Of a stretch of DNA of 64,000 nt, positions 49,152 to 54,848 are shown piece by piece. The notes below the pieces were generated by a model, which was given only the letters and a program-made list of their open reading frames with translations, made no database searches and was not told where the DNA came from. Source of the DNA: Alicyclobacillus tolerans (GTDB taxonomy: Bacteria > Bacillota > Bacilli > Alicyclobacillales > Alicyclobacillaceae); NCBI RefSeq assembly GCF_001447355.1, contig NZ_JXBW01000006.1, forward strand, positions 124,001-188,000. The letters run 5' to 3'. Made by a program: the position numbers and the translations under genes. The stretch's first letter is position 1. Each line of letters opens with the position of its first letter.

Positions 49152-49530
49152 TCGTATGATCCTCCTTTGGAGTAAAGTCAGGATGATGTCCTATTAGAGA
49201 TATACATCAAATGTATAGGAAAACTCAAACGAAATCTTTGTGGCAATTTATTACGAACTGCCTATCGAGTTTTCCACGGAAATAGAAAATACACAATAAC
49301 GAAAGAATTCAGTGCTCACTTCAGCAATGCCAAAGCATGACGCCTTGCCGTATCCTGGTATTGAGTCAATACAATGGACACATAAAAATTGAGAATGTAC
49401 AAGATTTCCCACTCGATGCCTTGGCCGTGCTTGACATGTAGCCTATGTGGGCACGATGTCGCCTTTGACCGCAGCGCAACCACGCTCGCCCTTGGTAGAC
49501 CGGCCAGGCTATCATACCCGCCTCTCCACG
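49152..49530. other. Upstream region of fdxA and left edge of the mobile island
   Basis: It holds the fdxA upstream sequence with an inverted repeat, then about 250 bases with short ORFs in several frames but no recognisable gene. The far end of the IS3 remnant (its second inverted repeat) was looked for here and not found. Confidence 0.45.
49201..49217. promoter_or_regulatory. Inverted repeat upstream of fdxA
   Basis: TATACAT-CAA-ATGTATA, perfect 7-bp arms with a 3-bp spacer, 50 bases upstream of the fdxA start; possible operator. Confidence 0.4.
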
Positions 49531-50075
49531 TCAAACACTCACTTGGCAATGTGCACCGGCACCTTTCAACCGTTCCTCGAAATATTGGCGTTCGACGTCA
49601 TCGGACGTCCGATAGCCAACTGCAGGAGCGAGGAATTTTCGGCCGTTCGCGCCATGCGTAATAGCTGCTCCGAGATACACCGAGGACTTTGTACATCTTC
49701 TGAACCGGAAATTTGGAGCGGTACTTGTGGAGCCAGGCATACACTACCTTCCGTGAAGATGCACATTTTTTTTTAGAATTTCATTCTCCTCTCGCAATTG
49801 GCGATTTTCTCGCTCCAGAGCGCACATCGCTTTCGCGTCCGGTCTCAGGTTCCCGCTTCCAACGAATGGGGTCTTAAGATCTTCGCGATACTTCGCGATC
49901 CACCCTTACAAACTCGTCACGAATATCCCGAGATTGCGTGCGATCTCACTTGGCTTCTGGCCTTCCAAAGCGAGTTGAACAGCATGTAGCTTAAAGTCGT
50001 TGTGGTACTTTTCTGTCACGTGGCTCACCCCGAATGTACTTATTCTTACATTCTCAATTCGCTGTATCCACTGTT
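49531..50075 (-). pseudogene. IS3-family remnant 1, internally deleted and interrupted by IS21
   Basis: On the minus strand an OrfA N-terminus (VTEKYHNDFKLHAVQLALEG, then PSEIARNLGI) runs into a frameshift, then ALERENRQLREENEI, then the start of OrfB (MYKVLGVSRSSYYAWRERPK). This is joined directly to the OrfB C-terminus (VGYRTSDDVERQYFEERLKG ... stop), so the DDE core of OrfB has been lost. The outer end of the element, GTTTTAACCTAACA, lies at 52519-52532 beyond the IS21 insertion. It is not functional. Confidence 0.75.
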
Positions 50076-50142
50076 TGTAAATGGCCAGGTTAGAATCGAC
50101 AATAGTGGCCACTAAAAATCGTCATTGATAGGGGTGATAAAA

Positions 50143-50217
50143 AAGATCCGCACTCCTCTTGTCGAAAGTTGTAGGTGCGAACAAACAACATAGACAAGAT
50201 GAAGAGGTGCGGATCTT
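50143..50217 (+). promoter_or_regulatory. Hairpin masking the istA start
   Basis: Arms aagatccgca (50143-50152) and tgcggatctt (50208-50217), with further pairing cttgtc / gacaag inside. The right arm includes the GAGGTG RBS and touches the TTG start of istA. Confidence 0.5.
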
Positions 50218-51742
50218 GCGAGAGACTCTCAAAACTATGATACAGGTTCAGACGTTAAAAAACGAGGGGTTAACCAACAAAGCCATTGGAGAAAGATTGG
50301 GAATTCACCGACAGACCGTTGCCAAATATCTGGGTCAGATGCAGCAGGTGCGTCTTCAGGGCCGAGAGATGGATTACACGGCATCCCACCGTGTCCGTCC
50401 TAGACTGATTGATCCTTACCTGGAGTACATACGACGGCGGTTGGAGGCTTATCCGGAACTGACGGCCAAGAGATTGTTCAGGGAGATCCGGGACATGGGA
50501 TTCACTGGGTCAAAGCGGACGGTCCGTCGATACGTTGCTCCGCTTAAAGCAAGGATTCCGGCCCGTGTCTATAAGCCATACGAGACGGAACCGGGAGAAC
50601 AAGCGCAGGTCGACTGGGGTCATGAAACATGGGAATACAACGGACAGAAGACGAAGATTTACTGCTTTGTGTTCGTCCTATCTCATTCCCGAATGCGATA
50701 CGTAGAGTACGTGACGTCGTTGGACAGTGTCGTGTTTCTGAATTGCCTGTATCGGGCCTTTGAGTACATCGGCGGTGTGCCAAAGAAGATTCTGTTCGAC
50801 AACGCGAAGGTCGTGGTTAGCGAGCGCGTGGGGCGCGTGATTCGATTCCAGCCCGACCTGCTGCAGTTCGCAGCGTTAATGCAGTTTCAGCCGGAAGCAT
50901 GCTGGGTTGAGGACCCGGAAACCAAGGGGAAGGTTGAGTCCACGGTCGGGTACGTTCACCGCGACTTCTACTATGGGCGTGAATTTTCCGATCTGGACAG
51001 CGTGAATCAGCAAGTCCGTCAATGGTGCAATGAGGTGAATCGAGAAGTCCACACCACTACTCAGGCCATACCTGTAGAGCGATGGGCCCTGGAAAAGTCG
51101 AAACTGACTCCCGTTCCAAGGAAGAGACCTGTCCTGTTTCGGGTGCAGCGAGTCAAAGTGGATAAGGCCAGCCAGTTCACATTTCACCAGAACAAGTACT
51201 CCGTCCCCAAAGAGTATGCCCGTCGCTATGTACGACTTGAGATTTATGAACAAGAGTTTCGGGTCATGGCGGATGAAACGGAGATTGGGTGTTGGCCTCG
51301 AACGACAGAACGCGGCAAGCAGTTCTTGTGTCCAGAGCACTACGAAGGTCGCTTTAAGGGAGCCAAGCAGTCTGCCCTGGAGAACCAGTTCAGGAACCTG
51401 TGCAACCATGCATCTGCTTATCTGCAAGGGTTAACGGAAGCTCGTGGCCATAGCCTTCGCGAGCAGATGCAGCAGATTGTCCAGCTCGCCGACGAGTTTA
51501 CGCAGGATGAGCTCGATGCAGCGATGGAGCGATCGCTACAATTTGGCAGCTTCGGGTATGGTCCATTGCACCGTATCCTGATGAAGCTGCGTGAAGCACC
51601 GGATTCGCTGCCAAAACGGATGACCGCGTCCTCACAGACAGCCATGGTCCCACTCCCGCATGTGGGTGTAGAGACACGGGATCCCAGCTATTATGCCAAA
51701 CGATTGGGAGGTGCCTTATGGAAGACCTCCTCGATGGGCTGA
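50216..51742 (+). CDS. istA: IS21-family transposase IstA
   Basis: About 508 residues from TTG 50216, 6 nt after GAGGTG; an upstream TTG (50159) would give 527 residues. It has an N-terminal helix-turn-helix (NEGLTNKAIGERLGIHRQTVAKYL), then the DDE core with QAQVDWGHETW, KKILFDNAKVVV and ETKGKVESTVGY carrying the three acidic residues. A C-terminal domain follows. It cuts and joins the IS ends together with IstB. The frame is intact, so the element may be active. Confidence 0.93.
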   Translation: MRETLKTMIQVQTLKNEGLTNKAIGERLGIHRQTVAKYLGQMQQVRLQGREMDYTASHRVRPRLIDPYLEYIRRRLEAYPELTAKRLFREIRDMGFTGSKRTVRRYVAPLKARIPARVYKPYETEPGEQAQVDWGHETWEYNGQKTKIYCFVFVLSHSRMRYVEYVTSLDSVVFLNCLYRAFEYIGGVPKKILFDNAKVVVSERVGRVIRFQPDLLQFAALMQFQPEACWVEDPETKGKVESTVGYVHRDFYYGREFSDLDSVNQQVRQWCNEVNREVHTTTQAIPVERWALEKSKLTPVPRKRPVLFRVQRVKVDKASQFTFHQNKYSVPKEYARRYVRLEIYEQEFRVMADETEIGCWPRTTERGKQFLCPEHYEGRFKGAKQSALENQFRNLCNHASAYLQGLTEARGHSLREQMQQIVQLADEFTQDELDAAMERSLQFGSFGYGPLHRILMKLREAPDSLPKRMTASSQTAMVPLPHVGVETRDPSYYAKRLGGALWKTSSMG

Positions 51743-52452
51743 AACGCCTGAAACTTCGGTATACCAGGGATTGTGTCGATGAGTACTGTCGGATTGCTGC
51801 AGCGCGCGACATGAGTTTCTACGACTTCTTGAAAATGATTGTCACAGAAGAAGTAGCAGTTCGCGAAGAAACGCAGCGGACGAAACGGTTGCGTAACGCC
51901 AAAATCCCGGCTCACAAAACGCTGGCAGAGTTCGACTTTTCGTTCCAACCCAGCATTCCCAAGCGGGAAATCCTTGAACTGCAGACGTTACGGTTTGTAG
52001 AGAATCACGACAACGTGATCCTTTTGGGACCACCCGGCTTGGGGAAAACACACATCGCGACCGCACTTGCATACGAAGCGGCGATTCAAGGTAAGGATGT
52101 GCTGTTCACCACCGCCCAAGAGCTCGTAGACAATCTCTACGCCGCATTGGCGGATGGCACCGTAAAGAACAAACTAAGGGCACTGGCGAAGCTGGATCTC
52201 GTCGTAATCGACGAGCTTGGATATTTGCCAATGGATGACACGGCAGGAAACCACCTGTTCCAGGTTGTATCCGCGGCTTACGAGCGCCAAAGCCTCATTG
52301 TGACGAGCAACCGACCCTTTCAGGAATGGGGAGCGTTGTTCCCCAACCCATCTTTAGCAAGCGCAACGCTGGACAGGCTGTTACACCACGCATTTGTATT
52401 TACGTTTTCAGGAGACAGCTACCGAATGAAAGGAGGCACCGCGAGTCTCTAA
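51718..52452 (+). CDS. istB: IS21-family helper ATPase IstB
   Basis: The product is 244 residues with GGGAGGT upstream of the ATG and a 25-base overlap with istA. It is an AAA+ (DnaC-like) ATPase: Walker A GPPGLGKTHIATAL, Walker B LVVIDELGYLPM, sensor TSNRPFQEWG. It selects target DNA and stimulates IstA. Intact. Confidence 0.94.
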   Translation: MEDLLDGLKRLKLRYTRDCVDEYCRIAAARDMSFYDFLKMIVTEEVAVREETQRTKRLRNAKIPAHKTLAEFDFSFQPSIPKREILELQTLRFVENHDNVILLGPPGLGKTHIATALAYEAAIQGKDVLFTTAQELVDNLYAALADGTVKNKLRALAKLDLVVIDELGYLPMDDTAGNHLFQVVSAAYERQSLIVTSNRPFQEWGALFPNPSLASATLDRLLHHAFVFTFSGDSYRMKGGTASL

Positions 52453-52546
52453 TCTCCCACGCCAAGTGATGATTTTAGTTGGCCATTTTAGACGAAAACA
52501 AATTGGCCATTGACAACTGTTTTAACCTAACACCGATTGACTACAC

Positions 52547-52588
52547 AAAAGAGGCTGTTCCAAGCACTTGAGGGGGGGCAGCCTCTTT
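52547..52588 (+). terminator. Hairpin after the IS elements
   Basis: Stem aaagaggctg / cagcctcttt (10 bp) with a G-rich loop, ending in TTT. It insulates the downstream foreign gene from IS21 read-through. Confidence 0.55.
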
Positions 52589-52727
52589 CATACGTTCAAA
52601 ATCGGTTGCGGCACGAATGCAATGTACGATTGATTTGACGTTTACATAGACAGAAATTTGGTTTATGGTCATTTATATCTAACCGTGTTGATTTAACTGA
52701 CAATCTTGTTGAAAGGAGAAACCATCT

Positions 52728-53600
52728 TTGTCCAACTTCGAAAGAGAGATGCTTCATCAGGCCGTTAGAAAACAAATTGAACTTCGCGACAAGTGGGGAG
52801 ACGAAATTTTGGACAGAACTCCTCCCGTGCTCTGGTTTGGAAACACCCACTCATCCAAAAAGAAGATAGTCACAATCGGGGCGAATCCGTCTCGGGAAGA
52901 ATTTCTTGCGATGAATAAAGAAGAGGCTCTGAAAGTGTTAGCAGACACCCATGACCAGACCCAGCTCAAATACCTAGAACCACCTAGGAATCGTTTCAGA
53001 GTACTAGATAAGACAGAATCCCTGCAAGACATTCTTCAGAACCAAAGGCTTTCGACAGAAATCTTGGACAGCTACAACAAGTACTTTCAGAAAAATCCTT
53101 ACGAAGAGTGGTTTGGAAAAAAGGCCGATCCATACCGCGTGGAACGGTTAATACGGAGCCTAAACGGATCCTACTACGAGATCGCAGATGTGCAATATAC
53201 AAGCATCCATCTAGATTTGTTCCCATTCGTCACGGTGAGTGACTATAACACGGTTAAAGATTTACCACAACGAGATCTGTTTCAAAATCAATGGGCACAG
53301 AACTTTCTTAGTGCTTTGATAGAGTACGTATCACCCGAACTCATCATCGTATTCGGCAGTGGTAACTTTACCGAATTTAAAAAGCTGTTTTTCGCACATC
53401 TTCGAAAACTATCCTCCGAACTTAAGTTCGAGTATCAAAAGGAGAACGGTCAATCCGTAAGCGCGAGGTACGAAATCATGTCCTATCAAGGGAAAACCAA
53501 CTTGGTTGGGATTTCCACGAACCTGGGCAATCCGACGGGATTCACCAAGCAAGCGTTGGATGCGCTAGGTAACCAAATCCTTCGAGATTTGCACAGATGA
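52728..53600 (+). CDS. Unknown protein with uracil-DNA-glycosylase-superfamily-like motifs
   Basis: The product is 290 residues; TTG start with AAAGGAG 9 nt upstream. Residues 47-55 (IVTIGANPS) follow a strand and resemble motif 1 of MUG/SMUG-type glycosylases (GxNP). Residues 268-272 (NPTGF) near the C-terminus resemble the second motif (NPSG). Between them lie HLDLFPFVTVSDY and a strand ELIIVFGSGNFTE. These are visible motifs; the superfamily assignment is inference. The gene is visibly richer in A+T than its neighbours, uses many AAA/GAA/TTT codons, and is bounded by IS remnants, so it was probably acquired. A DNA-modification, repair or defence role is possible. Confidence 0.6.
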   Translation: MSNFEREMLHQAVRKQIELRDKWGDEILDRTPPVLWFGNTHSSKKKIVTIGANPSREEFLAMNKEEALKVLADTHDQTQLKYLEPPRNRFRVLDKTESLQDILQNQRLSTEILDSYNKYFQKNPYEEWFGKKADPYRVERLIRSLNGSYYEIADVQYTSIHLDLFPFVTVSDYNTVKDLPQRDLFQNQWAQNFLSALIEYVSPELIIVFGSGNFTEFKKLFFAHLRKLSSELKFEYQKENGQSVSARYEIMSYQGKTNLVGISTNLGNPTGFTKQALDALGNQILRDLHR

Positions 53601-54002
53601 CGATGCGTAGACCAACCGAATTGGAAAAGTTCCATTAGACCAAATAAGCAATCGATAGACCCTATGACGGCATGTTCGGCTTTGTCCCTTGCAGGCGGAA
53701 AGGCATGTTCCGTACTTTCGAAACCCGACTACCCGTTCCATCCTGGCGTACATATTTATGAAACGTAGATGACAGAGAAAATGAGTTGTAAGGTCAGCTA
53801 GATTTTTCAAAAATCAGCAGATCCAATGAGAGCATGGCAAGGATGAAGCACAAAATGGTATTTGCTGTGGTGATCTTTCATCGCTACGTTAAAGGAGTGA
53901 GGCAGAATGTGTCTGGTACGAAAAATAGGGCTCGATTGCTTCTATCCAATCACATATTTCACAAGAAGACTGATGAACAGCACCCACTTTCACTAAATGA
54001 AC
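53601..54002. other. Stretch after the UDG-like gene, no clear gene
   Basis: A plus-strand ORF of 61 codons (53834-54019) runs into IS3 remnant 2 and could be the cut start of an older gene, but it has no RBS. In another frame, ATG 53907 follows AAAGGAG by 9 nt and opens only 29 codons. Neither is convincing. A small A/T-rich palindrome (TTTTTCAAAAATC) occurs near 53802. Confidence 0.4.
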
Positions 54003-54566
54003 TTAAGGATCGGCTATGATTTTTGGACTCCCATACAATCGACGAGATCGCAGGAACAGCTCATGAAAGCGACGAATCCGTCGCTTTCTGCGCTTGGAGC
54101 AAAGACTCTTTCCGGCCGTTCGCGCCACGCGTAATAGCCGCTCCGAGATACACAGAGGACTTTGCACATTTTCTAAACCGGAAATTCGGAGCGGTGCTCG
54201 TGGATCCAGGCATACACTACTTGCGGACGTTGGTGAAGATGCGCATGCCCTTTTTGGGATTTCATTCTCCTCTCGCAATTGGCGATTCTCTCGCTCCAGA
54301 TCGCGCATCGCTTTCGCTTCCGGTCTCAGGTTCGCGCTTCCGACGAATGGGGTCTCAGGATTTTCGCGATGCTTCGCGATCCACCCATACTAACTCTTCA
54401 CGAATATCTCGAGATCGCGTGCGATCTCACTTGGCTTCTGGCCTTCCAAAGCGAGTTGAACAGCAGTAGCTTAAAGTCGTTGTCGTACTTTTGTGTCACG
54501 TGGCTCACCTCAAATCGACTTATTCTTACATTCTCGATTCGCTGTGTCCGCTGTTTTAACCTAACA
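54003..54566 (-). pseudogene. IS3-family remnant 2
   Basis: On the minus strand it starts with the terminal sequence TGTTAGGTTAAAACAGCGG (54566 downward), then OrfA (VTQKYDNDFKLLLFNSLW, frameshifted), RDLERENRQLREENEI, and the start of OrfB through FHELFLRSRRLYGSPKIIADP, where it is cut. It is closely similar to remnant 1 over several hundred bases but keeps a segment of OrfB that remnant 1 lacks. It has several frameshifts and is not functional. Confidence 0.75.
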
Positions 54567-54848
54567 CCACATTTCCTAATGCGTTCCGGCATCTCCATTG
54601 CCTTCGCCCATGCACACGGGGCTCGGCTCCCCCCTGTTCCCTCTTGCAAGGCGTTCTTGACGACACGGCAGGATTCACTTCAGGTTGCAGCCTGGTATCT
54701 TGCTCGCTCTTTCTCTGACAGGTACTTTCGTCGATCCCGCTTCCACGCACAGATTTCGCTGTACGCTGGCATCCTAGCTACTCAGATGTCTTGATACTTT
54801 CCGACGTCAGACTTTCACCGCCTAGCTAGCGCCCATGCCGGGTGCGCC
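54567..54848 (-). mobile_element. Probable 5' fragment of a group II intron
   Basis: Read on the minus strand the stretch begins GCGCACCCGGCATGGGCGC, followed by GGCGGTGAAAGTC. This resembles the 5' end and early domain I of bacterial group II introns (GUGCGCCCGGCAUGGG..). Further on it has AGAGGGAACAGGGGGGAGCC and CGTGTGCATGGGCGAAGG. No reverse transcriptase or domain V is present; it is cut where IS3 remnant 2 begins. The family call is from memory of the consensus. Confidence 0.45.

What the first reader, a model, noticed from the sequence alone, without database searches (positions are those of the whole stretch)
52728..53600. Foreign gene with UDG-superfamily-like motifs inside a mobile-element island
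The gene is AT-rich against a GC-richer background and sits between IS21 and an IS3 remnant. It has a GxNPS motif after a strand at residue 51 and an NPTGF motif near the end, in the order seen in mismatch-type uracil-DNA glycosylases. Its overall sequence is otherwise unfamiliar. Stand-alone DNA glycosylase-like genes in such islands are candidates for anti-phage or DNA-modification-linked defence.
Basis: partly seen in the sequence, partly recalled or inferred. Interest (0 to 1): 0.62.

Follow-up and report, generated by a model that had tools for sequence, protein, structure and literature searches.

The report
Mobile Brig3-like anti-phage DNA glycosylase candidate
A lone gene dropped into an Alicyclobacillus chromosome among transposon remnants encodes a uracil-DNA-glycosylase-fold enzyme that carries the active-site residues of Brig3, a recently described enzyme that cuts hydroxymethylcytosine out of phage DNA, so it is probably an anti-phage base-excision enzyme or a close functional relative of one.

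Summary
The 290-aa ORF at 52728-53600 is real: TTG start and ribosome site are shared with A. mali, and dN/dS is 0.22-0.34. It is AT-rich (44% against 53% GC). It lies in a 5.49-kb block absent from a 96%-identical relative, between two direct copies of an IS3-family remnant, one split by IS21. Pfam, NCBIfam and PDB sequence searches are empty, but the AlphaFold model (pLDDT 82.5) matches only UDG-superfamily structures (best 4zby, Z 10.4). The UDG reading is therefore right, but the best analogue is not MUG/SMUG. All eleven pocket residues reported for Brig3, a 5-hydroxymethylcytosine DNA glycosylase (PMC13160076), are present at the same local spacing (F37, N53 P54 S55 R56 E58, Y125, W128 F129, H161, D163). 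Brig1's Gln and Glu are not. A. mali's homologue abuts a DUF499/DUF1156/PLD-helicase defence locus, and another lies beside DISARM-like genes; the window copy stands alone. Complication: in one Bacillota family the homologue is chromosomal in 34 of 38 species, so a repair role for part of the family is not excluded. Direct alignment with Brig3 was impossible because its sequence is not held. Verdict: new member of a known kind.

The parts
52728..53600 (+). Brig3-like UDG-superfamily DNA glycosylase gene (290 aa, TTG start)
   Evidence: pocket residues
52713..52719 (+). ribosome-binding site AAAGGAG (GAGAGGAG at the same place in A. mali)
52641..52669 (+). sigma-A-type promoter-like site TTTACA-17-TATGGT; no more such sites than shuffles give, so suggestive only
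52878..52904 (+). motif 1 GANPSREEF (residues 51-59): N53 catalytic Asn of the UDG superfamily / Brig3 N50; E58 = Brig3 E55
53097..53114 (+). PYEEWF (residues 124-129): Y125, W128, F129 = Brig3 Y97, W100, F101
53208..53216 (+). HLD (residues 161-163): H161, D163 = Brig3 H125, D127 (essential base-reading acid)
53514..53543 (+). C-terminal loop STNLGNPTGF (residues 263-272); candidate DNA-inserting loop, NPTGF not conserved in the wider family
49636..50075 (-). IS3-family remnant copy A, main part (interrupted by IS21; continues at 52516-52532)
50076..52515 (+). IS21-family element (transposase + IstB) inserted in remnant A, target duplication ACTGTT
52516..52532 (-). end of IS3 remnant copy A after the IS21 (ACTGTTTTAACCTAACA)
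54109..54566 (-). IS3-family remnant copy B, direct repeat of copy A
49353..54842 (.). inserted block absent from the closest relative G003

Best explanation
[quoted passage not shown] It flips a 5-hydroxymethylated pyrimidine, most likely 5-hydroxymethylcytosine, out of phage DNA. E58 reads the hydroxymethyl group, an aromatic cage of F37/Y125/W128/F129/H161 holds the base, and N53 and D163 drive hydrolysis of the glycosidic bond. The abasic sites stop phage DNA replication. The gene is an accessory immunity gene carried on IS-flanked DNA. Shown here: a real gene under purifying selection, UDG fold, intact pocket residues, insertion absent from a close relative, and some relatives beside defence genes. 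Inferred: the substrate, the DNA target and protection from phage.
For: UDG fold: second AlphaFold model pLDDT 82.5, pTM 0.83; top VIA match 4zby Z 10.4, 3.6 A over 177 residues, the same PDB entry the Brig1 authors found closest to Brig1 (PMC11078745). Two distant family members reach Pfam UDG PF03167 directly. Brig3's reported residues F31, N50, P51, S52, R53, E55, Y97, W100, F101, H125, D127 (PMC13160076) correspond to F37, N53, P54, S55, R56, E58, Y125, W128, F129, H161, D163. N53, P54, S55, F129, H161 and D163 are invariant in 20 aligned relatives; E58 and W128 are nearly invariant. The fingerprint NPSxx[EQ]F..WF..HxD occurs in 0 of 200,000 shuffled proteins, and all 65 hits among 641 held ORFs are family members. 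Purifying selection against A. mali: dN 0.19, dS 0.88 (NG86); dN 0.21, dS 0.63 (YN00). Patchy in its genus, 2 of 15 genomes. A. mali copy lies 0.7 kb from HmaC/DUF499, HmaB/DUF1156 methylase and a PLD/SNF2 helicase; G035 copy beside DrmB, a C5 methyltransferase and a UvrD helicase.
Against: No other defence gene lies next to the window copy, and there is no BapA-like partner. The nearest large set of homologues in the tree (unnamed family f17) is near-universal, 34 of 38 species, in conserved chromosomal context, as for a housekeeping gene. Brig3 itself could not be aligned; R197 and N225 equivalents are unclear. No 5hmC-containing phage of Alicyclobacillus was found in the literature search.
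Confidence: 0.58

Rival explanations
1. It is a base-excision repair glycosylase (for uracil, hydroxymethyluracil, hypoxanthine or oxidised methylcytosine) that happens to be on mobile DNA; defence is not its role.
For: In family f17 the homologue is in 34 of 38 species at a conserved chromosomal place, next to an RNA pseudouridine synthase in one genus. Brig1 and Brig3 keep weak uracil activity (PMC11078745, PMC13160076). Two members weakly match the deoxyinosine glycosylase model TIGR04274.
Against: The uracil-reading Asn is replaced by Asp; the gene is sporadic in this genus and lies in an insertion; the host already has a PF03167 UDG; an aromatic cage plus E58 fits a hydroxymethyl group.
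Confidence: 0.22
2. It acts on another modified phage base, for example hydroxymethyluracil of SPO1-like phages or a glucosylated or otherwise decorated derivative.
For: Hydroxymethyluracil phages are the known modified-base phages of Bacillus (own knowledge). Brig2 acts on modified thymine (stated in PMC13160076). One clade of the family has Gln at the E58 position, as Brig1 has Q81.
Against: The window protein keeps the Brig3-type Glu at position 58 and Asp at 163.
Confidence: 0.12
3. It belongs to a DNA hypermodification pathway rather than to defence.
For: A distant branch of the family sits in a cassette with a thymidylate-synthase-like gene and an aGPT-Pplase3/ADDT gene.
Against: No such partner lies near the window gene or its close relatives.
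Confidence: 0.04
4. A decaying passenger gene with no current function.
For: It lies among degraded insertion sequences; the A. mali copy is cut by a contig end and one f17 copy (G730) has an in-frame stop.
Against: The reading frame and all pocket residues are intact; dN/dS is 0.22-0.34.
Confidence: 0.04

Closest known systems
Brig3 (5hmC DNA glycosylase from soil DNA, PMC13160076)
   Same: UDG-superfamily fold; all eleven reported pocket residues with the same local spacing (NPSRxE, YxxWF, HxD)
Brig1 (alpha-glucosyl-5hmC DNA glycosylase, PMC11078745)
   Same: Fold; closest PDB structure is S. tokodaii family-4 UDG (4zby) in both cases; Trp in the pocket; acid at the base-reading position
   Different: Brig1 has Q81 and N145-x-E147 where the window protein has E58 and H161-x-D163
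Family 4 UDG / UdgX (4zby, 1vk2, 6io9)
   Same: Fold over about 177 residues (Z 9-10)
   Different: 11-16% identity; different motif 1 (NPSR here); Asp instead of uracil-reading Asn; longer, with inserted segments
MUG / TDG / SMUG1
   Same: G-x-N-P in motif 1, fold (Z 8-8.6)
   Different: Lower structural match than family 4; NPSR instead of NPG; the NPTGF second motif is not conserved among relatives

Membership tests
UDG superfamily | UDG alpha/beta fold over most of the chain | tested here: met
   (4zby Z 10.4, 3.6 A, 177 aligned; all 50 rows UDG superfamily)
UDG superfamily | sequence match to Pfam UDG PF03167 | tested here: inconclusive
   none for the window protein; two relatives match, best E 0.00092
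MUG (mismatch-type UDG) | conserved second motif (NPSGLS-like) after the last strand | tested here: not met
   NPTGF of the window protein is not conserved in homologues
Brig3-type 5hmC glycosylase | pocket residues F31, N50-P51-S52-R53, E55, Y97, W100-F101, H125, D127 | tested here: met
   F37, N53-P54-S55-R56, E58, Y125, W128-F129, H161, D163
Brig3-type 5hmC glycosylase | intercalating N225 and backbone-binding R197 | tested here: inconclusive
   loop Asn 265/268 present but the alignment is ambiguous; the local Arg is not conserved in A. mali
Brig3-type 5hmC glycosylase | homology to the Brig3 sequence | not testable with these tools
   GenBank PX942695 is not held; no PDB sequence match
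Brig3-type 5hmC glycosylase | excision of 5hmC and defence against 5hmC phages | not testable with these tools
   needs assay
Brig3-type 5hmC glycosylase | operon with bapA (as in the one described Brig3 locus) | tested here: not met
   no gene downstream of 53600 before IS3 remnant B
Brig1-type glycosylase | Q81 and E147 in the pocket | tested here: not met
   E58 and D163
Defence-island gene | neighbouring defence genes | tested here: inconclusive
   absent at the window; present for A. mali and G035

The most novel reading that the evidence does not exclude
The family is a widespread base-excision system of Bacillota against hydroxymethylated or further decorated phage bases. It is fixed as a core gene in one whole family, with a Glu-to-Gln switch at the specificity position marking clades with different target bases, and the window gene is a mobile member of it.
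Probability: 0.3. Interest if true: 0.65.

Novelty: new member of a known kind. Interest (0 to 1): 0.5.

Why it matters
Brig-type base-excision immunity was found through soil DNA libraries. The Brig3 source island had no match in GenBank, so natural hosts are poorly known. Here is a defined gene in a sequenced Gram-positive genus, with relatives that are partly mobile and partly core, no Pfam or NCBIfam model, and an obvious set of residues to test. If it is a 5hmC glycosylase, phages with hydroxymethylated bases should infect these hosts.

Tried and rejected
Single-sequence searches of Pfam, NCBIfam and PDB gave nothing; PADLOC gave a weak AriAB hit and PHROGs two weak hits, taken as chance. 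Profile searches of PDB sequences gave only chance hits, mainly to a phycobilisome linker that shares 'YF..PY..WF'. No relative in phage records; only a Leptospira plasmid among plasmids. MUG filing rejected (see membership). IS21 as carrier rejected: it inserted later into the IS3 remnant. Composite-transposon carriage by the two IS3 remnants is possible but both are truncated, so not claimed. BapA identity for the 350-aa gene next to the G396 homologue could not be tested (no PADLOC or Pfam match). A first AlphaFold run (pLDDT 70) was replaced by a second with a different alignment. Other phyla could not be sampled in the genome search.

Full report
Observation. The ORF at 52728-53600 is a real gene. 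It starts with TTG after AAAGGAG; the A. mali homologue starts with TTG after GAGAGGAG at the same place. Against that homologue (71% identical protein), dN is 0.19-0.21 and dS 0.63-0.88. Gene GC is 44.3% against 52.7% for the window.

Surroundings. The closest relative searched, G003 (96% identical DNA here), has the left and right flanks joined, so 49353-54842 is a 5.49-kb insertion. Another species, G011, carries different genes at the same place, by my reading of the ORFs a sulfate/molybdate-type ABC transporter. Inside the window's block are two direct copies of a degraded IS3-family element (about 90% identical). An IS21 lies inside the first copy with target duplication ACTGTT; the second copy shows the unbroken site. 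IS21 is therefore a later arrival. DNA similarity to A. mali covers the gene and about 35 bases upstream only, so the gene is found in different settings in the two species.

Fold. Single-sequence searches of Pfam, NCBIfam and PDB are empty. With an alignment of permitted relatives, AlphaFold2 gives pLDDT 82.5 and pTM 0.83. All 50 top Foldseek rows and all 50 top VIA-align rows are UDG-superfamily structures, best S. tokodaii family-4 UDG 4zby (Z 10.4, 3.6 A, 177 residues). The Foldseek E-values alone are modest (best 0.0015). Two relatives match Pfam UDG.

Active site. The Brig3 paper (PMC13160076) lists the crystallographic pocket. Its short motifs NPSRxE, YxxWF and HxD and the Phe before motif 1 all occur in order in this protein. 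N53-P54-S55, H161 and D163 are invariant across 20 relatives; E58 and W128 nearly so. No shuffled protein among 200,000 and no unrelated ORF among those held shows the fingerprint. In Brig1 the corresponding residues are Q81 and E147, which the window protein lacks. The host's only PF03167 protein lacks the fingerprint.

Distribution. In the genus, 2 of 15 genomes carry the gene. A profile finds it in 43 of 398 class genomes, mostly one family, f17, where 34 of 38 species have it in conserved chromosomal context. The tree groups the window gene with A. mali (100/100) and then with two accessory homologues, G046a and G028 (99/98); next come the f17 and f15 genes (97/97). One f17 genus has Gln instead of Glu at the specificity position, a single well-supported clade. 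The A. mali homologue lies beside a DUF499/DUF1156/PLD-helicase defence locus (Hma- and DISARM-like models), and the G035 homologue beside DrmB, a C5 methyltransferase and a UvrD-like helicase. G035 is a very divergent member with a long, uncertain branch, so it counts for less.

Reading. The enzyme fold and pocket are well supported (about 0.95 for a UDG-superfamily glycosylase). A hydroxymethyl-pyrimidine substrate, most likely 5hmC, is inferred from residue identity (about 0.65). Defence is inferred from relatives' function and neighbours and from the mobile setting (about 0.65). The core status in f17 is the main counter-evidence and keeps a repair role open.

Noticed in passing
L010 6976-10809; L013 4861-8786; L015 5128-8788; L075 4947-7684: Conserved cassette in a Leptospira plasmid and in prophage-like contigs: thymidylate-synthase-like gene, a distant relative of this glycosylase, an aGPT-Pplase3/ADDT gene and, where the locus is long enough, an opposite-strand HTH-ImmA/IrrE gene. 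It could be a base-modification or defence module and deserves its own study.
   Followed up: partly
L042, L043, L046 and other g322 loci: One f17 genus has Gln in place of the otherwise conserved Glu of NPSxxEF, the position that reads the base in Brig3 and is Gln in Brig1; it forms one clade.
   Followed up: partly
L008 367-2193 and 2215-3252: The G396 homologue is followed after 3 bases by a 350-aa gene of unknown family and preceded by a WYL-domain regulator; glycosylase then unknown gene is the same order as brig3-bapA, but BapA identity is untested.
   Followed up: partly
L001 8798 end and L070 7330 end: The A. mali homologue is split over two contigs that share 8 bases (GTTAATTT), as an insertion-sequence target duplication or an assembly gap would give.
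   Followed up: no
L103 1711-6445: G011 carries different genes (sulfate/molybdate-type ABC transporter by reading of the ORFs) between the same flanks, so this chromosomal place varies in content.
   Followed up: no
L063 7745-8188: The G730 homologue is broken: two matched pieces in adjacent frames, one with an in-frame TGA; one of the few f17 losses.
   Followed up: no
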